Origin: a virus
Virus record (IMG/VR): IMGVR_UViG_3300037882_003995
Location: 1-21,500 of that record
Reading direction: 5' to 3' (one strand)
DNA length: 21,500 bases
Shown: positions 3,100 to 21,087 of the stretch, piece after piece
Layout of the letters: each line of letters starts with the position of its first letter
How positions within the stretch are numbered: the stretch's first letter is position 1
Notes under the pieces: model-generated
Told to the model about the DNA's origin: nothing
Seen by the model: the letters and a program-made list of their open reading frames with translations, nothing else
The model's database searches: none
Made by a program: the position numbers and the translations under genes

Positions 3100-4667
3100 C
3101 ACGCCGACAAATCCAAGATCGCGGTGCGCTCGCCCGTTTGATCGCCGCCAACACCAACCGTCCGCTGTTGATCCGTCAAGAAGCCGTTGGCCCGCTGATG
3201 GGTCAATTGGGCATACATCAAGAACGCCCGTCCCGCTTGGCCGCACTTGGCCGTATGTTTGGCATGGGTGCCACCAATGGACCGCCCCAGCCGATGGCGT
3301 GGGATGATTATGATGATGCGCCGCCCCGCGCGGGCACAATGGCCGATTGGCTGGGTGAAGATTTACGCCCGACGGTGCCGGGTCTTTCGGGATCGGGCAT
3401 CATTGGCGAGGGCTGGGGCTATGTGATTGCCGATGGCGGCATTGCCATCATCGGCATTGAGGGGGCTTTGCCCGCTCACGGCGGCTATTATTCAGACGCC
3501 TATCATGGCTATGACACCATTTCGCGAGCCCACGGCGAGGCACAGGCCGATGGCCGTGTGCGTGGCGTCATGATGCTCTCCAACACACCTGGCGGCGTCG
3601 TGCATGATGGCTTGAACGCTTTGGCAGATGAGCTGCGCACGGGCGACAAACCGCTTTGGACCTTTGCCGACATGGCCTGCAGTGCAGGCTATTGGATGGC
3701 CAGCGCCAGTGACCGCATTTTGTCGGGCCAATATGGTCAAACAGGCTCTATCGGAGTGGTCATCGTCCATCAGAATATGACGGGCGCTTTGGCGCAAGCG
3801 GGCGTTGAAATCGAAACAATCGAGTTTCCTGCCAATGCCGAAAAGACCGCAGGCGCTTGGTGGAAGGCTTTGTCTGAAACCACACGCGCAGATCTACAAG
3901 CCGACATAGACCAGATTGGTGCGGACTTCATTGCGGCGGTGGTGGCGGGTCGGCCCTCGATGGACTCCGCCGCGATCGAAGCGCTTGGCGCACGGGTTTT
4001 CATGGGCGCACACCGCGATGCCGGCCGCTCTGCTTTGTCGATTGGCTTGATTGACGAGATCGCACCAAGCCCGATGGCGGCCATTGCGTCGCTGGTCGCC
4101 AGTCTGCCCACAACTGTCGCGGTCTCCGTACCTGCAGACCCTCTCGCAACCCCAAACCGCGCGGACGCGGCTCGTCCGAAAACACCAGAAAAGGAGGCCG
4201 ACATGGCCCTTCGCAATCGACTATCAGCGGCCATGCCAGCCTTGCGCGCCGCCGCCCCCAAAACCAGTGCTGAAGATCAACTCAAGGCGATCCAAGACAT
4301 TCTGGATGCTCCCGATGAAGACGAAGAAGACCTCGAGGAAGACGATGCGGATGTCTCTGACGACGTGTCCGACGACGAGGAAGAGGGCGATCCTATGGCG
4401 ACGGCGCAAGCCATCATGAACCTGCCAGAAGCCAAAGGCCGCGATGCTCTTGCCAGAGTCCTCGCCTTTCAAAAGGGCGCAACGGTTGCAGGCGCAAAAG
4501 CCGCTCTCGGTGCCGCCCCAAAAGGCCGCACCATGGGTCCCGTGCCCAATCCAGAACTTGGTGCGGGTGGCGAAAGTGGGGCGGGGGGGACGCTGGCACA
4601 GCAAACCCTTGCCATTGCCCGCCAAGACGCCCTCGCCCGTCAGGGTGCCGCCCCCCGCAAATCTTAA
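3096..4667 (+). CDS. S49-family prohead protease (lambda gpC-like) with C-terminal scaffold domain
   Basis: This is a serine protease of the SppA/gpC family that processes the prohead during maturation. The product has 523 residues (lambda gpC: 439). The protease domain covers roughly residues 95-340. Ser196 in MACSAGYWMASASD is the probable nucleophile, and Lys250 in ANAEKTAGAWW the probable general base; the 54-residue gap is close to the 52 between lambda gpC Ser166 and Lys218. GQTGSIGVV follows the serine as in the family. Residues 340-369 form a Pro/Ala linker. Residues 370-523 form a scaffold-like tail with a strongly acidic patch at about 404-433 and can be made separately from an internal start. 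The ATG overlaps the portal stop (ATGA). Confidence 0.93.
   Translation: MTRRQIQDRGALARLIAANTNRPLLIRQEAVGPLMGQLGIHQERPSRLAALGRMFGMGATNGPPQPMAWDDYDDAPPRAGTMADWLGEDLRPTVPGLSGSGIIGEGWGYVIADGGIAIIGIEGALPAHGGYYSDAYHGYDTISRAHGEAQADGRVRGVMMLSNTPGGVVHDGLNALADELRTGDKPLWTFADMACSAGYWMASASDRILSGQYGQTGSIGVVIVHQNMTGALAQAGVEIETIEFPANAEKTAGAWWKALSETTRADLQADIDQIGADFIAAVVAGRPSMDSAAIEALGARVFMGAHRDAGRSALSIGLIDEIAPSPMAAIASLVASLPTTVAVSVPADPLATPNRADAARPKTPEKEADMALRNRLSAAMPALRAAAPKTSAEDQLKAIQDILDAPDEDEEDLEEDDADVSDDVSDDEEEGDPMATAQAIMNLPEAKGRDALARVLAFQKGATVAGAKAALGAAPKGRTMGPVPNPELGAGGESGAGGTLAQQTLAIARQDALARQGAAPRKS
4191..4197 (+). promoter_or_regulatory. Internal Shine-Dalgarno site for the scaffold start
   Basis: AAGGAGG lies five bases before the in-frame ATG at 4203, deep inside the protease gene. 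It is among the strongest ribosome-binding sequences in the window, and most neighbouring genes have weak sites or rely on overlaps. That placement argues for a real internal translation start rather than chance. Confidence 0.75.
4203..4667 (+). CDS. Probable internal in-frame scaffold protein (Nu3-like)
   Basis: In lambda, the scaffold Nu3 is translated from an internal in-frame start in gene C and shares the C-terminus of the protease. The same arrangement is visible here: ATG 4203 is codon 370 of the protease, preceded by AAGGAGG with five-base spacing, and it would give 154 residues. The product has an Ala-rich helical N-terminus, a highly acidic segment at about residues 35-64, and a Gly/Ala/Gln-rich C-terminus (ALARQGAAPRKS). 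High helix content, low complexity and strong charge are typical of capsid scaffolds. The independent product is an inference from position and ribosome-binding site; a protease-only model would read the segment simply as a C-terminal domain. Confidence 0.7.
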   Translation: MALRNRLSAAMPALRAAAPKTSAEDQLKAIQDILDAPDEDEEDLEEDDADVSDDVSDDEEEGDPMATAQAIMNLPEAKGRDALARVLAFQKGATVAGAKAALGAAPKGRTMGPVPNPELGAGGESGAGGTLAQQTLAIARQDALARQGAAPRKS

Positions 4668-4712
4668 TCGGCACTCCTCGCCAAAAAAAACGCAAAATCG
4701 GAGCCTTAAATC

Positions 4713-5081
4713 ATGGAAGTCACCAAAGCTGTTGCCCCTAAAACCGTCGATCAAGTCGTCGCTTGGGAAATTGAAACCACCTACACCACTGAAACCCGTG
4801 TCTGGGCCGCTGGTGTTCCCGTCACAGAAATTGGACAAGTTTATGGCGTCGTCACTTCAAACGGCACCATCAAACCACACGACGTCGCCAACTCTGACGG
4901 GTCAGAAGTTGCTGCTGGTATTGCGCTCACCCGTGGCGTGGCTGGCGAAACCTGCGCGGGCCTCGAAAATGGTCCGGCGATTGTCTTTGTCGATGGCTTG
5001 ATTTTCAAAGCAGGCATCTCTGCCCCAAACAAAGCCGCCGCCCTTGCCGCCTTGCGCGCCAAACTCATCAAGGCTCGCTAA
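4713..5081 (+). CDS. Head decoration protein, lambda gpD-like
   Basis: gpD forms trimers on the outside of the expanded capsid and stabilises it against DNA pressure. The product has 122 residues (lambda gpD: 110). The core shows the family pattern: a beta-rich start, TSNGTIKPHDVANSDG around residues 48-65, AAGIALTRGVAG at about 66-78, and NGPAIVFVDGLIFKAG, followed by a C-terminal helix (KAAALAALRAKLIKAR). It sits between the protease/scaffold and the capsid gene, as in lambda. A CGGAG ribosome-binding site lies about nine bases before the ATG, in a 45-base gap after the protease stop; this gap is one of the largest in the window and is compatible with independent high translation. Confidence 0.88.
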   Translation: MEVTKAVAPKTVDQVVAWEIETTYTTETRVWAAGVPVTEIGQVYGVVTSNGTIKPHDVANSDGSEVAAGIALTRGVAGETCAGLENGPAIVFVDGLIFKAGISAPNKAAALAALRAKLIKAR

Positions 5082-5092
5082 ATCGCGCCAAT

Positions 5093-5122
5093 CTTTACCC
5101 CCTTAATCCTGAAAGGATAAAG
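5093..5122 (+). promoter_or_regulatory. Short hairpin over the capsid ribosome-binding site
   Basis: ATCCT (5106-5110) and AGGAT (5114-5118) form a five-base-pair stem with a GAA loop. An outer CTTT (5093-5096) can pair with AAAG (5119-5122) across a bulge. The right arm is the Shine-Dalgarno sequence of the capsid gene. The stem is weak and may be without effect, but it lies exactly on the site that sets capsid yield. Confidence 0.25.
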
Positions 5123-5124
5123 TC

Positions 5125-6171
5125 ATGTTGACACTACTCGACAGCGGCGGAAGCCAGCTCATCTACACAAACCGCGAAGTTTCTGAATTGATCAATCTCT
5201 TGCCACCTGTTTCCCAACGCTTGACGGCGGCAGGGCGGTTCCGTCCACGCGGCGGTACATCGGCATTTGTAGAAATTGAACGCCTTGAAACTTCACTACG
5301 GATGATTCCAGCCGTTGCAGACGGTCGCCCTGCCAATCGACAGGCCCGCAAGCCCGGTGAAAGCCTGATCTTCAAAATCCCCAACATGCCGGTGATCACC
5401 ACGATCACAGCTAATGCCATTCGCAATATTCGCGCTGCCGGTCAGCGCGGTGCCCGCACAATGGCTGACGAAGTCAATCGCGAACTCACCACAATGCGGA
5501 TGCAATTTGACTTGACACGCGAGTATCTGCGCATGACCGCCCTCAAAGGCATCATCAAGGATGGCGCGGGGAGCACATTGTACGATCTTTATGAGGCCTT
5601 TGGCATCACTAAAAAGACCGTTGACTTTGCGCTTGATGTACCCACCACAAATGTGCGCGCCAAATGCCAAGAGATTGTCGCTCATGTTGGGGCTAATTTG
5701 CGCGGCGATACGTTCACGCAAATCCAAGTCGAGGTTTCAACTGATTTCTTTGACGATCTGATTGCCCACCCCAACGTCGAAAAATTCTACGTCAACGCAG
5801 AACAAGCGCTCAATATTGCTGATGTGTTGCGGGGCGTCGATGCCAATTATCGCCCGCGTGAGTTCCCATTTGGCGGGGTTCGTTTTGTCGAAGTGCCGGG
5901 ACAAGTTGAGTTGTGGAACGGCACTACCGCCCCCTTCATTGAGCCGGGCTTCGGTCACGCTTATCCAGGCGGGACTTTGATGACTGAAGAAGCCTTTGTG
6001 GCTCCGCCAATCGACATCACAGAAATGACGGGCGTGCCTGCCAATGTGGCGGATGTCCTGCACGTCACGCAAGAAATCTTGAAGCACAATGCCGGCGTTG
6101 AGCTTCAGGGCCAATTGAACGAACTTCCACTTTACAAGCGCCCGCAAGTGCTTGTCGAAGTCACGAAGTAA
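5125..6171 (+). CDS. Major capsid protein, lambda gpE-like
   Basis: This is the main shell subunit, with the HK97 fold. The product has 348 residues, against 341 for lambda gpE. Family features include the N-terminal LTLLDSGGSQLIYTNREVSE segment, RPRGGTSAFVEIE, a helical region with RMQFDLTREYLRMTALKG at about residues 131-148, STDFFDDLIAHPNVEKFY near 206-223, and AYPGGT in the C-terminal part. The protein carries no long N-terminal delta domain, which agrees with a separate scaffold. An AAAGGA site lies before the ATG and a short hairpin (ATCCT/AGGAT, 5106-5118) contains it. The stop at 6169 is followed by the left arm of a long inverted repeat. Confidence 0.93.
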   Translation: MLTLLDSGGSQLIYTNREVSELINLLPPVSQRLTAAGRFRPRGGTSAFVEIERLETSLRMIPAVADGRPANRQARKPGESLIFKIPNMPVITTITANAIRNIRAAGQRGARTMADEVNRELTTMRMQFDLTREYLRMTALKGIIKDGAGSTLYDLYEAFGITKKTVDFALDVPTTNVRAKCQEIVAHVGANLRGDTFTQIQVEVSTDFFDDLIAHPNVEKFYVNAEQALNIADVLRGVDANYRPREFPFGGVRFVEVPGQVELWNGTTAPFIEPGFGHAYPGGTLMTEEAFVAPPIDITEMTGVPANVADVLHVTQEILKHNAGVELQGQLNELPLYKRPQVLVEVTK

Positions 6172-6179
6172 ACCCCAAA

Positions 6180-6262
6180 GCCATCGGTCCAGACCCCTCA
6201 TGAACCCCGATCTTTCTGCGCTCGCGCTTTCGGGCGCAAAGCAGGTGATCTGGACCGATGGC
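6180..6262 (+). repeat. Perfect 14-base inverted repeat around a start codon
   Basis: The left arm at 6180-6193 (GCCATCGGTCCAGA) and the right arm at 6249-6262 (TCTGGACCGATGGC) are exact reverse complements. They enclose a 55-base loop with the ATG (6200) of the FII-position gene, which has no visible Shine-Dalgarno site. The left arm begins nine bases after the capsid stop; the right arm is inside the coding sequence. There is no T-run after it, so it is not a simple terminator. A short GCGC stem can form inside the loop. The arms are seen directly; a regulatory RNA role is inferred. Confidence 0.7.
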
Positions 6263-6583
6263 GCTTTCATTCCTGGCAGCGGCGCACCTGTGCCGCTGCG
6301 TCTATGGCGTCGCGCCAAGCGCCGGCCACAAAACATTGACGGCATGATGATCGGGGTCTTTGTCACCCAAGTCATCATCCACGTGGACCGCGCGGACCTG
6401 ACAGCCGAACCCGTCACCGATGACAGCTTCACGTTGGAAGGCCCCTATGGCCTTGAACAGTGGCGCGTGTGTGAGCGCGCAGCGGGTGAGACATTTATGG
6501 GCAATCAAGTTTGGCGCGTCCCCGTTGAGCCTGTGCCAGACACCGCTGCCACAATCTTCATGGACGGCAATGGCTATGAGTGA
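6200..6583 (+). CDS. Probable head-tail connector/stopper (FII position)
   Basis: The product has 127 residues (lambda gpFII: 117). FII-type proteins bind the filled head through gpW and create the docking site for the tail. I assign this role from position directly after the capsid gene and before a Z-like gene, from length, and from a beta-rich pattern (two strands around IDGMMIGVFVTQVIIHVDRA, then QWRVCERAAGE and NQVWRVPVEPVPDTAATI). Sequence identity to gpFII is not evident by eye, so a different connector type is possible. The ATG at 6200 was chosen because an upstream in-frame ATG (6152) would start inside the capsid gene. No ribosome-binding site is visible, and the start lies in the loop of a long inverted repeat. 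The stop overlaps the next start by eight bases. Confidence 0.5.
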   Translation: MNPDLSALALSGAKQVIWTDGAFIPGSGAPVPLRLWRRAKRRPQNIDGMMIGVFVTQVIIHVDRADLTAEPVTDDSFTLEGPYGLEQWRVCERAAGETFMGNQVWRVPVEPVPDTAATIFMDGNGYE

Positions 6584-7349
6584 TTTGCACCTTGGCCTTG
6601 CCCTTGAAGGCAATCTGCAATCATGGGGCGAGGGTCTGGTCGACGCGATGATCGGCGCAATCTCTGTCTCCGTGGCCGATGAAGCCAAGCGCGTCGAGCG
6701 GGCTTTGGAAGATGAAACGTCGATCTTGGGCGGCTTGGCCCGTGCTTGGGAGTATGAGCTGTTTCCAAAATCAGGCCGTTCTTATTCGCCATCCGCTGAT
6801 GTAGTTCATACCGAACCACATATCATCGAAGCCCATTCCAATGGTGCTGACATTCAGGCCAAGCGCGGGCGCTATCTTTGGATTCCTATTGAGGGAAGCC
6901 CTGCAGATCGCCGCTATGAAAAACATCAAATTCCAAGACTGGAAATGCAAAGTCTGTTTGGTCGCGACCAAATCAAACTCATCGTCACCAAAAAGGGCCA
7001 GTTGTTGGTTGTTGCGCAAGGCAAGGCGATGGACCCTGGCATGGCGATGGGAAAGTCTCTGCGCAAAGAGTTTAAGCGCCGCCGTGGCTTTGGTAAAGCG
7101 GGCAATGTGACGCGCACCTATAACCAGCACAGCAGCTTCACAAGCTATATTGAGCCCGACGTCACCATTCCTTTGTTCATCCTAAAGCCAAACGTTCGCC
7201 TTGAAAAAATCATGGACTGGCGGGGCCGCGCGGAAATGGAAGCGCGCAGTTTTCCAGACCGTGTCGATTCCAATTTGCAAGCCCGCTTTGATGCATATGC
7301 CAGAAATCCGGACGGCATTGAGCATATGCGGCGGGAGTATCCGTTATGA
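6576..7349 (+). CDS. Tail completion protein, gpZ/DUF6441-like
   Basis: The product has 257 residues from ATG 6576; ATG 6570 two codons upstream is equally possible. It resembles DUF6441 phage proteins, which sit at the lambda Z position: an N-terminal helical part, then KRGRYLWIPIEGSPA near residues 96-110, a basic segment (SLRKEFKRRRGFGKAG), PLFILKPNVRLEKIMDW near 206-222, and an aromatic C-terminal helix. gpZ acts at the tail end that joins the head. The order connector-Z-U-V supports the assignment. The family match comes from memory of the pattern and not from a search. The start overlaps the previous stop, and the stop overlaps the next ATG (ATGA), so coupled translation is likely. Confidence 0.55.
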   Translation: MSDLHLGLALEGNLQSWGEGLVDAMIGAISVSVADEAKRVERALEDETSILGGLARAWEYELFPKSGRSYSPSADVVHTEPHIIEAHSNGADIQAKRGRYLWIPIEGSPADRRYEKHQIPRLEMQSLFGRDQIKLIVTKKGQLLVVAQGKAMDPGMAMGKSLRKEFKRRRGFGKAGNVTRTYNQHSSFTSYIEPDVTIPLFILKPNVRLEKIMDWRGRAEMEARSFPDRVDSNLQARFDAYARNPDGIEHMRREYPL

Positions 7350-7840
7350 GCAAAACCGCCAGTCAAATTGCGTTCGATGGACTTGGGGCCATCATAGTCG
7401 CCGCGCTTTCCCCACAAGCCGTTCTATTCAATGCCCGCGTTGATGAGCGCCTCGCCAAGGCAGGCCAAAGCGCCACAATCGTCAATTGGGTCTGGTCGCG
7501 CCGTGCGCCCGTCGAGACAGGGCGCCAGTTCGGGCAGGGTGTCGGCCTTGATGTGGTTGACTTTAATCGCGCCTTCAATCTGGAAATCGTTTGTCGCGCC
7601 GCGTCTGACGAAACCATGGCACAGGCTGTCGCCGATGTGGATGCGCTTGTGATGGAGGTCCGCGCCGCATTGATGCCAGGGCCGTCGGTTCCTGATCCGA
7701 CGCATGGCGGCATTGTCCGCCATTATGTGTCCGTTGCCAGCGCTCAAGACGCAACCGAAGCCTTTGCCGGTGCCGCCCGCGTTGCCGCGCGCGTTCTCAC
7801 CATCACTGCCCATCTGCGCGCCATTGGCGACCCAGATTAA
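7346..7840 (+). CDS. Probable tail terminator (gpU position)
   Basis: The product has 164 residues (lambda gpU: 131). Tail terminators form a hexameric ring that stops tail-tube growth and caps the head-proximal end. The protein begins with a hydrophobic helix (AIIVAALSPQAVLF), has a central strand (GVGLDVVDFNRAFNLEIVCRA), a long helix around ADVDALVMEVRAALM, and a C-terminal strand (RVLTITAHLRAIG). This alternation of strands and helices and the position between a Z-like protein and the tail tube fit the terminator fold, but no signature motif is visible. The ATG overlaps the previous stop (ATGA). Confidence 0.5.
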   Translation: MSKTASQIAFDGLGAIIVAALSPQAVLFNARVDERLAKAGQSATIVNWVWSRRAPVETGRQFGQGVGLDVVDFNRAFNLEIVCRAASDETMAQAVADVDALVMEVRAALMPGPSVPDPTHGGIVRHYVSVASAQDATEAFAGAARVAARVLTITAHLRAIGDPD

Positions 7841-7866
7841 TCCACAAAACCACAAGGAGAGCCATC

Positions 7867-8082
7867 ATGTCTAAAATGCCAAGTAAAAACCTTGAAACCA
7901 AAACACAACCAACCCCCGAAAGCCTAGAGGCTACCCGCGCCATTTACATAGAAGCTGGCCTGCCGCCCGGGTCCATTGATGCGATCATGTCGGCGGAAAA
8001 TGTACGAGTGCAACAATTTACACAGCCTTCTGAAGATGTGCCCCCGCCTCCTAGCTCTGAGCCCGCGCCGATAGTCTCTTAA
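7867..8082 (+). CDS. Small tail-region protein, unrecognised
   Basis: The product has 71 residues and I do not recognise it. It has an excellent ribosome-binding site (AAGGAG seven to eight bases before ATG 7867) and a 26-base gap on its 5' side, which suggests it is made in quantity. It is hydrophilic: a Lys/Thr/Gln-rich N-terminus, a predicted helix (PESLEATRAIYIEAG), and a C-terminal tail rich in Pro, Ser and Glu (EDVPPPPSSEPAPIVS) that is likely disordered. It sits between the terminator and tail tube genes, where lambda has no gene. Chaperoning or trimming of the tube is possible but unsupported. Confidence 0.6.
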   Translation: MSKMPSKNLETKTQPTPESLEATRAIYIEAGLPPGSIDAIMSAENVRVQQFTQPSEDVPPPPSSEPAPIVS

Positions 8083-8121
8083 TTTTCCCCCAACTCTGTT
8101 TATCATAGAAAGGCAGTCGCC

Positions 8122-9087
8122 ATGACCAGTTCTAGACTTGTCCGCACGTATTTGGGCCTCCAAGCCGACCGTGACACGGTTGCGGGCACTCTAATCAATC
8201 ATCGCATCATGTCGATGTCCCAGGCAAAGCTGACCCGAGCGCGCGTGACGGATAATCAACTGGGTTTGGCAAGGGATGCCAGCCGGGATCCTCGCGATGG
8301 ACGCACGGGTCTGCCCGATGGCGTGATTAACGTTACCGTCCCCGTGAATGTGTTTGAGATCGGATATTGGTTGTCAGGATTTCTCACACGTGGCCTGCCA
8401 TTTGGGCCGGGGCCTTACTTCCACGGCTTTGTATCTGGCGGCGTGCCGTCAAATTACCTTACGTTGATCCAGCAGTTCTCCAGCGGAGCCATTGAGCAAG
8501 CCAACGGCTGCTGGGTGTCTCAGGCCCGGATTCGGTGGCAGAAGAATGCCACGGTCGCGCGCATGGATTTAACTTTAATCCCCGCCCTTCAGTTGCCTAC
8601 CACGTCAGTTCTGCCGCCCGCTTTAGCCAGCGCTACCGTCCACCCCGATGTGGACTTGAGCGAGTATCGCTTTGCGGCAACCTGGGGCGGAGCGGCGCAA
8701 GCGGAAGTCACAGCGCTTGATCTCCAAATTGATCTGGGTTTGGAGCGTATTCAGGGCCTAAATGGTAATGAGTGGCCGACGCGGCACCATGCAGGCGACA
8801 TTAACATTTCAGGCAGTGCCACGCTTTACGGCGATGCGGAGGCGTGGCGTGCTGACGCAGCATTTAATTTGCGCAAAGCTCTTTTGATTAGCGGCCTGTG
8901 CGATTCTGACCCGACGCAAGCCATCAGCTTTACGCTGCCGCGTGTCGAAAGCGATCAGTTTGGGCGCTCCGTCACTGAAAGCGGCCCGCAATCGGCCACA
9001 GTTTCGCTGCGGGCATCTCGTGGCGGGGTTTCACCCATCCCCGCTCTCTCAGTGGCAGTAACCAACCAACTGGCAAGTTACGTTTAA
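8122..9087 (+). CDS. Major tail tube protein
   Basis: This protein should polymerise into the tube through which DNA passes. The product has 321 residues, longer than lambda gpV (246). It shows the usual tube pattern: a start with TYLGLQADRDTVAGTLINHRIMSM, INVTVPVNVFEIGYWLSGFL near residues 68-87, a beta-rich core, NISGSATLYGDAEAW near 227-241, and a strand near the C-terminus (PQSATVSLRAS). The gene lies between the terminator and the chaperone/tape measure genes. A GAAAGG site precedes the ATG. The extra length could be an added surface domain, as the C-terminal Ig-like domain of gpV is. The stop overlaps the next start (TAATG). Confidence 0.75.
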   Translation: MTSSRLVRTYLGLQADRDTVAGTLINHRIMSMSQAKLTRARVTDNQLGLARDASRDPRDGRTGLPDGVINVTVPVNVFEIGYWLSGFLTRGLPFGPGPYFHGFVSGGVPSNYLTLIQQFSSGAIEQANGCWVSQARIRWQKNATVARMDLTLIPALQLPTTSVLPPALASATVHPDVDLSEYRFAATWGGAAQAEVTALDLQIDLGLERIQGLNGNEWPTRHHAGDINISGSATLYGDAEAWRADAAFNLRKALLISGLCDSDPTQAISFTLPRVESDQFGRSVTESGPQSATVSLRASRGGVSPIPALSVAVTNQLASYV

Positions 9088-14230: not shown

Positions 14231-14706
14231 GACAAAGCCTATTGGAGCGCAAGGAGCAACATGGACAACTTGATCTGAGTTGGACGGATTGTTATCGCCA
14301 GATTCCCTATGTTTTGGGCGGCGCTTCGGTTGCCGGTGTCGATTGCTGGGGCTTGTGTAGATTGGTCGCCCGCCGCGAATGCGGCTTGAGTTTACCGGAC
14401 ATAAATGCACCAACGGCAGGCCTGCGCGGGCAAATGGCCGCGTTTGATCTCCAAAAACAAGGCGCGCCTGTTGTGTTAGAGGGCGCGCCAATTCCCCTTC
14501 ATTCGATTGTTTTGATGGGGCCACGGCCAGATTCCAGCATTGCCACACATGCAGGCATGCATGTCGGCTTTGGCTTTGTGATGCACGCGGGTTCTGCTTT
14601 TGGCGTTCGGGTAGATTGTATCGACCAACTGAATGATTTGGCGCTGCATGTCGTTTCCATCCATGACATTTATCAAGCAGCAGCTTGGCTGGCGGGCCGG
14701 TCATGA
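14227..14706 (+). CDS. NlpC/P60 cysteine peptidase of the tail tip (gpK position)
   Basis: The product has 159 residues from ATG 14227, chosen because it overlaps the preceding stop. NlpC/P60 enzymes cut peptide bonds in peptidoglycan, and tail-tip versions assist tail assembly and may open the wall during entry. Cys40 in GVDCWGLCRLV is the catalytic cysteine; His112 in THAGMHVGFGFVMHAG fits the HVG histidine, and His120 the third polar residue. PLHSIVLMGPR corresponds to the usual PGDIVLF segment. Lambda gpK has an N-terminal JAMM domain before this module; here only the NlpC part is present. The stop overlaps the next ATG (ATGA). Confidence 0.87.
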   Translation: MRQSLLERKEQHGQLDLSWTDCYRQIPYVLGGASVAGVDCWGLCRLVARRECGLSLPDINAPTAGLRGQMAAFDLQKQGAPVVLEGAPIPLHSIVLMGPRPDSSIATHAGMHVGFGFVMHAGSAFGVRVDCIDQLNDLALHVVSIHDIYQAAAWLAGRS

Positions 14707-17700
14707 TTTCACGTGACATGCAGCTTGTCGCTGGCCCACTGTCAGCACCCAAAGCCCTGACTATCGCAGGCCTTAGGGAATCGCCCACTTTAGCCGATGC
14801 CCTGGCGGCATGCTCTGAGCTTGCGCATGTGCCACGCAATCAAATCGAGATTTCTATAGGCCCCACCATCATTGCGCGCGATCAATGGACCCTCACTGCG
14901 TGGCCAGATGATATTGCTCCGGTGATCATGGTGCGGCCTGCTGACCCTGCCACTATCGTTGCCACGGCAACCATGGTGTTCAAGGCAGTTGAGGCCTTTG
15001 CGGCGGCTAATCCCCAATTGTTTGCGGCTTTGGTCAATGCAGGCTTTGCCCTGTTGTCCAAGGCCTTTGATCCGCGTGCGAAAAAGCAACGAGCCGCGCA
15101 AGAGGCTTACAGCATTGAAAGGGCAGGCAATCAGGCGCGCCCAGGTCAGCCTGTTCCCGTGCTTATGGGCCGCCGCCGTATTTTTCCAAGTCTTGCCGCA
15201 CCGTATCGCAGGCGGGCCGATGGTGCCGGGAAGCTGTGGCTTGATGTTCTGCTTTGTGCGGGCGTTGGGCAAATGGATGTTGACACGCCCCGTCTTCAGG
15301 ACACGGCCCTGACATCAATCGACGGCGCGATCTGGCAAGCCCAAACCAAAGCGGGTGACCCCGCGCAGACCATTTATCCCAATGTTTGCTTCGCACAATA
15401 TGTGGGTCGTGAGTTTAAAGACAGCGCGGACGGCTGGCACACCACAAGCCTGCCGGATATTGTCACCAGTGTTGAAGTGCTGCTGTTTTATCCGGCGGGC
15501 CTCGGTCGGATAAAGAGCAATTCTGGCACGGTGGTTGGGCACAGCGTGACATATGAAGTACGCGTTGGTCCGGTCGCCGTCGCGCCCGACGCTGCGCCAT
15601 CGTCGTTTTCTTTTACGCATAGCGCCCAAACTCGCGATGGGTTTCACCGGGCACACACCATCACCGTCTCGCCTGCGCGTTATGATGTGCACTTTAGGCG
15701 CGTGACGCCAAATACAGGCACGGACAAATTGGAAAGTGCAATTCTGCTTCAGGTTGCGGGATTTTCCCCTGATGCCCCCGTTGCCGACCCCGATTTGCCC
15801 TTGATCTCAGTTTCAATCCCTGCGTCCAAAGTGTCAGAGGGGAGCATCGGCTCGTTCAATGTGGTGGCGACATCGCGTGTGCGCGAAGTCACAGCGACCG
15901 GGCCAGCGGCCATGATCGGCACGCGCAATCCAGCCGATCTTTTGCCCTCGGTCGCCGCTGCACCGTTTGCTGATCGCGCTTTGCCCGATACGGAAATTGA
16001 TTGGCCGACTCTTGCCACTTGGCGGGCATGGTGCGTCGCGCGGGGCTACTCCTGTGATCTCTATGAGGAAGGTGAAGTCGGGGGTGCAGAGCTGATGACG
16101 CGCATCGCCGCCACGGGGCGCGGGCGTTGGGTGTGGCGCAACGGGAAGCTCAGCGTCGTATGGGACGGTGAAAAGCCTGCAGCAACGCAGCTTTTCACGA
16201 CACGCAACGTGTCGCGGCTTTCGGGGAAGTTGATTTGGCCAGAGCCTGTGCATGGCCTGCGCGTATCTTTCGCGCGTGCTGAGCGCGATTATGCTACCGA
16301 TGAAATGGAGATTTTCGCCCAAGGCTACACAGGCTCCACAGCGACATTGTTTGATACTGCTGAAATTCGTGATCAGTGCGACACTGATCAAGTATCGACG
16401 ACCGCTGATCGAATGCTGCGAGAAACGCACGAACGGGCAGAAACATTCATTTTCGAAACTGATGGCGAAGTCCGCGCCATCAAACAATTGGACAGAATTT
16501 GGTTGACGCATCCAGGTGGTTTGGCGGGGCTTGCGAGTGCGCGTGTGTTGGACGTCTCCGCCGGTACGGTAAAGCTGGATCAAGCCGTGCGGGCACCCGC
16601 CGGGCAGCCGCTAGGCCTGCGCGCACGGCGTGGGGCCAACACCTTTGCAAGCATCGCAATTGCAAGTTTTGCAGTCGAAACTTACACCGATGTGCTGACA
16701 TTTGACGGCCCGCCGTCTCTGGATCTTCAGGTGGGTGATTTGGTGGGCTTTGGCGTCCGCACAATGGAATCATTTGATCTTGTCGTGGACACGATAAAGC
16801 CGCTTGCTAATAGCCGTTTTCAAGTCACCGCATGGCCTTACAGCAGTATCTTGGCAGGCACCGACCCCGCTACAGTTTATCGCACTTTTGCGGCCAACGT
16901 GATTGGCGGTGTGATCAGCGGCCAGTCAAGTGATGAGGGGATCAGATTGGCAGCGGGGATTATTGGCGCTGCGGGCGCGCCCGCCATCGGCACAAACATG
17001 GTGCGCTTTTCGCGAATGGACACCACGCGCGGCTATAAGGTGTTTTTCAACACAACCGGCCTCACACCTGCGCTCGCGGTTTTTGGCGATGCGAATGGGC
17101 AAAATTATCTGTTGGGATTTTTAGGTGCTTCGGTGGCTGCAGGCACGCAATTGTTTTTTGGGCCCGATGAACTTACCAATTTGGTCGGGTTGATACCGGG
17201 CCAGCGCTATGAGTTTTCAGCCGAGCCGATCTTTTCTGGCGCCGGTGCAGGTGCCACCCAAGAGCTTGTGCTGTTTGAATTTGATCTCGCCGGAGCGCCC
17301 TTGGCGGGCACGGTGTTGGGGACCGGTAGCGTTCAGGGTGTGTTTGCACCCATGGGCGGATTTGTGACGCTGCAGGCAACCACGAAATACGTTTGGCTGT
17401 TTCAGCGCATCATTTTTCAGGCGGGCAATGGTGCGCCCATCTTTGGCCTGCGGCGACCCTTCGTGGGCGCTGCGCGACTAGATCAGACTGTCTTATCGCC
17501 TTACTCCACCGGTGCCGAGGCCCAATTGGGGGCGGATGTGACGGGCGACAATACCGCCAAATTTTTAAAGGATGCAGGGACCGAAGCCTATCGCAATCGT
17601 GCGCGCCAATCGACGGCCCCAGTTTCGCCGCTGTCCGGCGATTATTGGGAAGACACGAGCGTTGCGCCTGTGCTGATCAAGCGTTACATCGGCGGTGTTT

Positions 17701-20329: not shown

Positions 20330-20687
20330 CCCGCTTTTCTGGTCAATGGCGCACGCCTTGGCCTTCATCGTCCTCATCTCGATCATCATTGTTCGCCCTG
20401 GCTATTGGGCGGGGTCGATCAATTGGCTGTCAGCCGTCGCGCTGGTCTTGCTCTCGACCGTGCGCGGCAAGGTGGCCCCACGCGGCGCGCGCACCCGCTG
20501 GCAATTCACCTGCCTTGTGTGCGGGGCTGCGGCCTCTGCCATGACGGCGCTGTCCTATCTTGCCCTATCGGCGTCTCTGCCACACGCGGCGGTGATGGTG
20601 GGGTTTGGGCGATGTTGGATGCTGTTGATTGTCATGGCTTTCGCGCTTGGGTCACTCTCGACTGGGCGTGACGGTCATGCAGTTTGA
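20322..20687 (+). CDS. Small multi-pass membrane protein, holin candidate
   Basis: The product has 121 residues from ATG 20322, which overlaps the o-spanin stop by eight bases (ATGGATAA). Four hydrophobic segments are visible: about residues 8-27 (MAHALAFIVLISIIIV), 31-46 (INWLSAVALVLLS), 61-82 (FTCLVCGAAASAMTALSYLAL) and 88-112. A basic stretch (RGKVAPRGARTR) lies between segments two and three. Size and topology fit a holin or antiholin, and the neighbours are lysis genes, but no holin family motif is recognised. It may instead be an accessory membrane protein. No good ribosome-binding site is visible, so coupling to the spanin gene is likely. Confidence 0.55.
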   Translation: MDNPLFWSMAHALAFIVLISIIIVRPGYWAGSINWLSAVALVLLSTVRGKVAPRGARTRWQFTCLVCGAAASAMTALSYLALSASLPHAAVMVGFGRCWMLLIVMAFALGSLSTGRDGHAV

Positions 20688-21087
20688 GGCTATCGGCGTC
20701 TTTATCATAGCCAATTGGATGGCACTCATGGCGGGCATTTTGGGCCTTGCCATGCGGGCCTCTCGCGTGCCGTTGCCCAATGGAGGCGCGGAACCACGCT
20801 CTATCTGGGCGCACGGTTGGCGATTGTTTCGCGTATGGATCGAAGCAACGGCCGGCGCATTTGTGCTGGCGCTCATTGCGGCGGGCGGCATGATCGCCAA
20901 GCCTGACCTTGTCGCGGCGGGAGCATCGCCCTTTGTGCTTGCTCTGTTTGTGTTTCTTGGTGCGGCCGCATCTGATCTCTGGATGCGCTGGGGAACCGAT
21001 CCAACTAAAGCGCCGGGCGACATCGCCAATGCTGTTGGCGGTCTGGTCGATGTTTGGCGACGGTTTAAGGGGGATGTGGCGTCGTGA
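20677..21087 (+). CDS. Small membrane protein, holin candidate
   Basis: The product has 136 residues from ATG 20677; a GTG at 20668 in the same frame is an alternative. It overlaps the preceding gene by 11 bases. Hydrophobic segments lie at about residues 4-24 (AIGVFIIANWMALMAGILGLA), 53-72 (TAGAFVLALIAAGGMIA) and 80-97 (ASPFVLALFVFLGAAAS), with a basic Arg/Trp region between the first two and a charged C-terminus (VWRRFKGDVAS). Three segments, a charged tail and this size match class I holins. Of the two small membrane proteins this looks the better holin, and the other may modulate it. The stop overlaps the next GTG (GTGA). Confidence 0.6.
   Translation: MQFEAIGVFIIANWMALMAGILGLAMRASRVPLPNGGAEPRSIWAHGWRLFRVWIEATAGAFVLALIAAGGMIAKPDLVAAGASPFVLALFVFLGAAASDLWMRWGTDPTKAPGDIANAVGGLVDVWRRFKGDVAS

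What the first reader, a model, noticed from the sequence alone, without database searches (positions are those of the whole stretch)
6180..6262. Perfect 14-base inverted repeat enclosing the start codon of the FII-position gene
GCCATCGGTCCAGA (6180-6193) and TCTGGACCGATGGC (6249-6262) are exact reverse complements 55 bases apart. The loop holds the ATG of the connector gene, which has no Shine-Dalgarno site, and the left arm starts nine bases after the capsid stop. A 14-base match this close is unlikely by chance in a window of this length. An RNA stem here could lower connector translation relative to capsid, act as an RNase III processing site that protects the capsid mRNA 3' end, or be a DNA-binding site.
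Basis: partly seen in the sequence, partly recalled or inferred. Interest (0 to 1): 0.6.

Follow-up and report, generated by a model that had tools for sequence, protein, structure and literature searches.

The report
RNA hairpin over head-closure gene start
Right after the shell-protein gene of an unnamed lambda-like bacterial virus, the messenger RNA is predicted to fold into a strong hairpin that hides the start of the next, rarely needed head-tail joining gene, a plausible but unproven way to make much shell protein and little joint protein from one message.

Summary
The perfect 14-bp inverted repeat 6180-6193/6249-6262 is real. No other perfect repeat of 12 bp or more with a gap up to 150 nt exists in the window; about 2% of composition-matched random windows hold one this long. 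None of 1319 gene-like ORF starts in related loci has an enclosing stem that long (longest 13 bp). The RNA folds far better than shuffles (z -5.5) and the stem forms with probability >0.96. It gives this gene the highest modelled ribosome-access cost in the window (23 versus 4-18 kcal/mol) beside a poor Shine-Dalgarno.

The gene is probably a diverged Phage_attach/FII head-closure gene, by synteny as well. Covariation could not be tested: capsid relatives are at best about 42% identical and no DNA relative was found.

Indirect support: across 23 capsid lineages the 80 nt after the capsid stop is unusually structured (mean z -2.3 versus about -0.6 to +0.2 in controls); some lineages put the hairpin in early head-closure codons. 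Best reading: an mRNA hairpin that throttles head-closure translation and may shield capsid mRNA. Known mechanism, new place; function unproven.

The parts
5125..6171 (+). major capsid gene (Phage_cap_E / lambda gpE family), upstream cistron
   Evidence: PF03864 E 2.4e-65; phrog_29 major head protein
6180..6193 (+). left arm of the inverted repeat, in the 28-nt capsid/head-closure gap
   Evidence: pairing probability >0.96 in 200- to 700-nt contexts
6194..6248 (+). loop region with the ATG (6200-6202) and an inner GC-rich hairpin (8 bp in the minimum-energy and centroid folds)
   Evidence: minimum-energy and centroid structures
6249..6262 (+). right arm; lies in codons 17-21 of the downstream gene (encodes I-W-T-D plus flanking bases)
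6275..6298 (+). second stable hairpin just downstream (10 bp, 4-nt loop), inside the head-closure gene
   Evidence: -21.5 kcal/mol alone
6200..6583 (+). diverged head-closure (Phage_attach / lambda FII-like) gene, 127 aa, start codon enclosed by the stem
   Evidence: PF05354 E 0.015, best hit; FII profile E 0.0018; hhalign E 9.4e-5, probability 59%; order capsid - FII - DUF6441 shared with L083, L088, L089, L100, L139
6576..7349 (+). DUF6441 gene in the lambda Z position (context only)
   Evidence: PF20039 E 1.4e-10; lambda order E-FI-FII-Z

Best explanation
The inverted repeat works at the RNA level as a translational gate for the head-closure gene. In the polycistronic late mRNA the 14-bp stem ties the sequence just 5' of the ATG to codons 17-21, so a 30S subunit must melt about 17 kcal/mol of helix to reach a start codon that also lacks a good Shine-Dalgarno. 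Initiation would be possible mainly on nascent RNA before the right arm is made, or while a previous ribosome holds the right arm open. A ribosome ending capsid translation reaches only the base of the stem. The head-closure protein, needed in few copies, would thus be made far below the capsid from the same message. The same stem, 8 nt after the capsid stop, may also hold up 3' exonucleases and stabilise capsid mRNA. Shown: the repeat, the predicted fold, the computed opening costs, the likely gene identity, and recurrence of hairpins in this region in relatives. Inferred: formation in vivo, effect on translation, effect on stability.
For: Fold z -5.48. Opening cost of the -18..+15 footprint 23.1 kcal/mol, highest of the window's genes (others 4.0-17.9, 18.4 for an alternative J start; capsid 10.9), falling to 6.0 once the left arm is open. 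Nascent-RNA model: cost 5.6-6.9 until the right arm appears, 24-27 afterwards, 5.9 again with a ribosome on the right arm; a ribosome edge at 6181 leaves 11 of 14 pairs. Across 23 capsid clusters (60% identity) the 80 nt after the capsid stop has mean z -2.26 versus -0.49 before the capsid, +0.15 to -0.28 inside it, -0.63 further on (paired p 0.003 to 1e-5); after the FII stop -0.35. FII opening cost exceeds that of the upstream gene (15.6 vs 10.2, p 0.0004). Related prophage head-closure genes carry an 11-15 bp stem at codons 5-9/16-20, with Ala codon 18 written GCG in 34 of 37 against 15 of 65 at other Ala positions. Precedent for start-site sequestration: T4 e, soc, 49, I-TevI (PMC3014915).
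Against: No covariation evidence: no alignable relative. No relative shows the same start-enclosing perfect stem; most FII-bearing relatives overlap or nearly abut the capsid gene. The FII-start excess of structure is only suggestive in codon-controlled paired tests (p 0.05-0.21), and the window's own gene, within its coding codons alone, is not more structured than codon-permuted versions (z -0.2 to -0.5). Per-window chance is about 2%. Opening cost against the downstream gene does not differ in general (p 0.68).
Confidence: 0.5

Rival explanations
1. mRNA 3'-end element: the stem protects the capsid mRNA from 3' exonucleases or is cut by RNase III, giving differential stability of capsid and downstream segments as in the Rhodobacter puf operon; any effect on head-closure translation is secondary.
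For: Stem begins 8 nt after the capsid stop; relatives have strong hairpins 3-31 nt after the capsid stop, mostly without a U-tract (L007, L051, L053, L061, L065, L105 cluster, L126). The puf intercistronic hairpin is a documented precedent in alphaproteobacteria (Klug et al. 1987, cited in PMC11354728).
Against: The stem contains a start codon and coding sequence, so translating ribosomes would keep opening it, unlike a plain 3' hairpin. 14 bp is short for a typical RNase III site (general knowledge). No terminator-like site was called on the + strand in 4500-8200.
Confidence: 0.2
2. No function: a chance or mutational (template-switch) inverted repeat that falls on a gene boundary.
For: About 2% of random windows have one; the scan covers many windows and many feature types; no conservation is demonstrable; the arm pair is found in no other viral contig.
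Against: Exact placement across a start codon; 0 of 1319 ORF starts reach 14 bp; the same junction is unusually structured in relatives.
Confidence: 0.27
3. DNA-level protein-binding site or recombination site.
For: Perfect inverted symmetry only.
Against: Arms 69 bp apart centre to centre, half inside a coding sequence; no third copy with fewer than 3 mismatches in the window, the 3-mismatch matches being near the chance number; no promoter-like site on the + strand in 4500-8200.
Confidence: 0.03

Closest known systems
Start-site-sequestering mRNA helices of phage T4 genes e, soc, 49 and I-TevI (PMC3014915)
   Same: Intramolecular RNA helix at the translation initiation region expected to reduce 30S binding to a phage gene.
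   Different: In T4 gene e and I-TevI the left arm is dropped from late transcripts, so the helix is a timing switch; here both arms lie in one operon with no promoter-like site between, so a constant throttle is more likely. Here the ATG is in the loop and the region just upstream in the stem.
Rhodobacter puf intercistronic hairpin (Klug et al. 1987, cited in PMC11354728)
   Same: Stable hairpin right after a highly expressed cistron in an operon whose products are needed in unequal amounts.
   Different: The window hairpin encloses the next start codon and part of its coding sequence; no RNA decay data.
Lambda late operon E-FI-FII-Z, where translation initiation sets relative expression (Sampson et al. 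1988, title seen as a reference in PMC5712128; text not held)
   Same: Same gene order around capsid and head closure; lambda FII also has a structured 5' coding region (codon-permutation z about -2.9).
   Different: Lambda has FI between E and FII, and its FII start was not found to be enclosed by such a stem; its FII opening cost is 14.7, not 23.1.

Membership tests
Phage mRNA helices that occlude a translation initiation region | Start codon or Shine-Dalgarno region predicted to be held in a stable helix | tested here: met
   Stem pair probabilities 0.97-1.0 in 200- to 700-nt contexts; bases -20 to -7 of the ATG lie in the stem and the ATG in its loop
Phage mRNA helices that occlude a translation initiation region | Helix shown to reduce 30S binding or expression | not testable with these tools
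   Only modelled opening cost (23.1 kcal/mol)
Phage mRNA helices that occlude a translation initiation region | Pairing conserved by compensatory changes | not testable with these tools
   No DNA-alignable relative
Phage_attach / lambda FII head-closure proteins (PF05354), for the downstream gene | Match above the Pfam gathering score | tested here: not met
   16.3 bits against 26; E 0.015, sole and best hit; so stated as FII-like by profile and synteny, not as a formal member
Phage_attach / lambda FII head-closure proteins (PF05354), for the downstream gene | Position directly after capsid and before the Z-position/DUF6441 gene | tested here: met
Intrinsic terminator | GC-rich stem, short loop, U-tract | tested here: not met
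   No terminator-like site on the + strand; right arm is followed by GCTTTCATTCC

The most novel reading that the evidence does not exclude
Capsid-E (lambda-type) phages as a class place RNA hairpins at the capsid/head-closure junction, either after the capsid stop, around the next start codon, or in the first ~20 head-closure codons, to set the large capsid to head-closure copy ratio, with different sequences evolving the same architecture repeatedly; the window is the start-enclosing version.
Probability: 0.3. Interest if true: 0.55.

Novelty: new member of a known kind. Interest (0 to 1): 0.38.

Why it matters
How one late message yields hundreds of capsid subunits but only a few head-closure subunits is an old question for lambda-like phages. 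A visible hairpin at exactly that boundary, and the excess of structure there across 23 distant capsid lineages, gives a simple testable cis-acting element. If confirmed it would help annotate regulatory RNA in phage structural operons.

Tried and rejected
Direct covariation test: sought relatives in viral contigs, genome contigs, phage and plasmid records and about 1030 bacterial genomes; best capsid identity about 42% and no junction alignable, so not done. Exact arm-pair scan of viral contigs: none. Rfam: only sub-threshold chance hits. Terminator and promoter scans: nothing on the + strand. Idea that head-closure gene starts are in general codon-selected for structure: mean z -0.86 versus -0.09 and -0.24 for neighbours, but paired p 0.05-0.21, kept only as suggestive. 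Start-spanning repeat at the J gene (14643-14724): not more stable than shuffles (z -0.48), rejected as a second example. Alternative start TTG 6152 for the gene: would add a low-complexity R/S/K-rich stretch with no counterpart in FII relatives, rejected. A first Fisher test used a wrong total; one search replaces it.

Full report
WHAT IS THERE. The window is a 21.5-kb virus record holding a lambda-type late operon: terminase end, portal, S49-type protease, decoration protein D, capsid E, a small gene, DUF6441, tail tube, tape measure, J-like fiber, amidase. Between capsid (stop 6169-6171) and the small gene (ATG 6200) lie 28 nt.

IS IT MORE THAN CHANCE. It is the only perfect inverted repeat of 12 bp or more with a gap up to 150 nt in the window; 2% of 150 Markov-2 windows hold one of 14 bp or more. 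Among 1319 gene-like ORF starts in the fetched loci the longest start-enclosing perfect stem is 13 bp. The fold of 6150-6300 has z -5.48, and the 120-nt window at 6181 ranks second of 1069 along the genome. Shuffling the 28-nt gap destroys the stability in all 1000 trials; drawing synonymous codons for the gene's start reaches it in 0.6%. So the structure is unusual, with modest significance for a scan of many windows.

WHAT THE GENE IS. The 127-aa product has Phage_attach (lambda FII) as its only Pfam hit, E 0.015, below cut-off. A profile from six head-closure proteins taken next to DUF6441 genes finds it at E 0.0018, and hhalign gives E 9.4e-5 with probability 59%.

COULD COVARIATION BE TESTED. 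No. Protein searches gave capsid relatives at 42% identity or less, none for the small gene or the portal in viral contigs, and no DNA match to the junction.

MECHANISM. The stem pairs with probability 0.97-1.0 in contexts up to 700 nt. The cost of clearing the -18..+15 ribosome footprint is 23.1 kcal/mol for this gene, highest among the window's genes (others 4.0-17.9; capsid 10.9), and drops to 6.0 when the left arm is free; for an alternative J start it is 18.4. The upstream sequence is a poor Shine-Dalgarno (-2.4 kcal/mol). Modelled on nascent RNA, the site is open (5.6-6.9) until the right arm is transcribed, then 24-27; a ribosome on the right arm brings it back to 5.9; a ribosome whose front edge is at 6181, my estimate for one terminating on the capsid stop, still leaves 11 of 14 pairs. 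This describes a leaky gate that allows few initiations per message. In lambda the same calculation gives low costs to the abundant proteins E and V (8.0, 8.6) and high ones to M, K and T (20.9-23.2), though nu3 is an exception at 21.7. Published work holds that initiation sets lambda late-gene expression (Sampson et al. 1988; only its title was available here).

COMPARATIVE EVIDENCE. Among 23 capsid clusters at 60% identity, the 80 nt after the capsid stop have mean z -2.26 (s.e. 0.40), against -0.49 before the capsid, +0.15 to -0.28 inside it and -0.63 100 nt further on, and -0.35 after the head-closure stop. Listing the junctions shows three arrangements: plain hairpins between capsid stop and next gene (L002/L055, L003, L007, L051, L053, L061, L065, L105 cluster, L126; only L002 and L013 look like terminators); hairpins inside the first head-closure codons (L050, L059, L060, L070, L147, L148, L151); and the window, with the start enclosed. 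In a Rhodobacteraceae prophage lineage the early-codon stem pairs codons 5-9 with 16-20; Ala codons are mostly GCC on the 5' side and GCG at codon 18 (34 of 37, versus 15 of 65 at other Ala positions; Fisher 5e-12). Sequences are related, so these counts overstate independence, and members whose protein changed there lose pairs. A codon-controlled test over 27 head-closure clusters gives mean z -0.86 for the first 30 codons against -0.09 (downstream gene) and -0.24 (upstream gene), but paired p values are 0.05-0.21; I regard it as a lead.

KNOWN RELATIVES OF THE MECHANISM. T4 e, soc, 49 and I-TevI mRNAs sequester their own initiation regions; the gene e helix lowers synthesis about 100-fold (PMC3014915). 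The puf operon uses an intercistronic hairpin for differential mRNA stability (Klug et al. 1987 via PMC11354728). The window feature works like the first and is placed like the second; function was not tested, so membership rests on structure only.

VERDICT. Observation confirmed; interpretation partly supported. A translational gate is the best explanation (0.5), with capsid mRNA protection (0.2) and no function (0.27) as real rivals.

Noticed in passing
window 14643-14667 and 14700-14724: A second inverted repeat spans the likely J-gene start (ATG 14703, ATGA overlap with the upstream ORF): outer 10 bp perfect, 72% complementary over 25 nt. The fold is not better than shuffles (z -0.48).
   Followed up: partly
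L241, L248, L250, L254, L255, L262 (first ~60 nt of the head-closure gene): Rhodobacteraceae prophage head-closure genes share a perfect or near-perfect 11-15 bp stem (GCCGCCGCCATGGAC / GTCCATGGCGGCGGC) at codons 5-9 and 16-20 with asymmetric Ala codon use.
   Followed up: partly
L105, L117, L120, L122, L123, L124, L129, just after the capsid stop: A conserved 11-bp hairpin (CCGGGTGGGTG...CACCCACCCGG) without a U-tract follows the capsid stop in this cluster, with a few arm substitutions; suitable for a covariation test with more members.
   Followed up: no
window 20601-20720: Most stable 120-nt window relative to shuffles in the whole sequence (z -5.2), near the end of the late region; not examined.
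   Followed up: no
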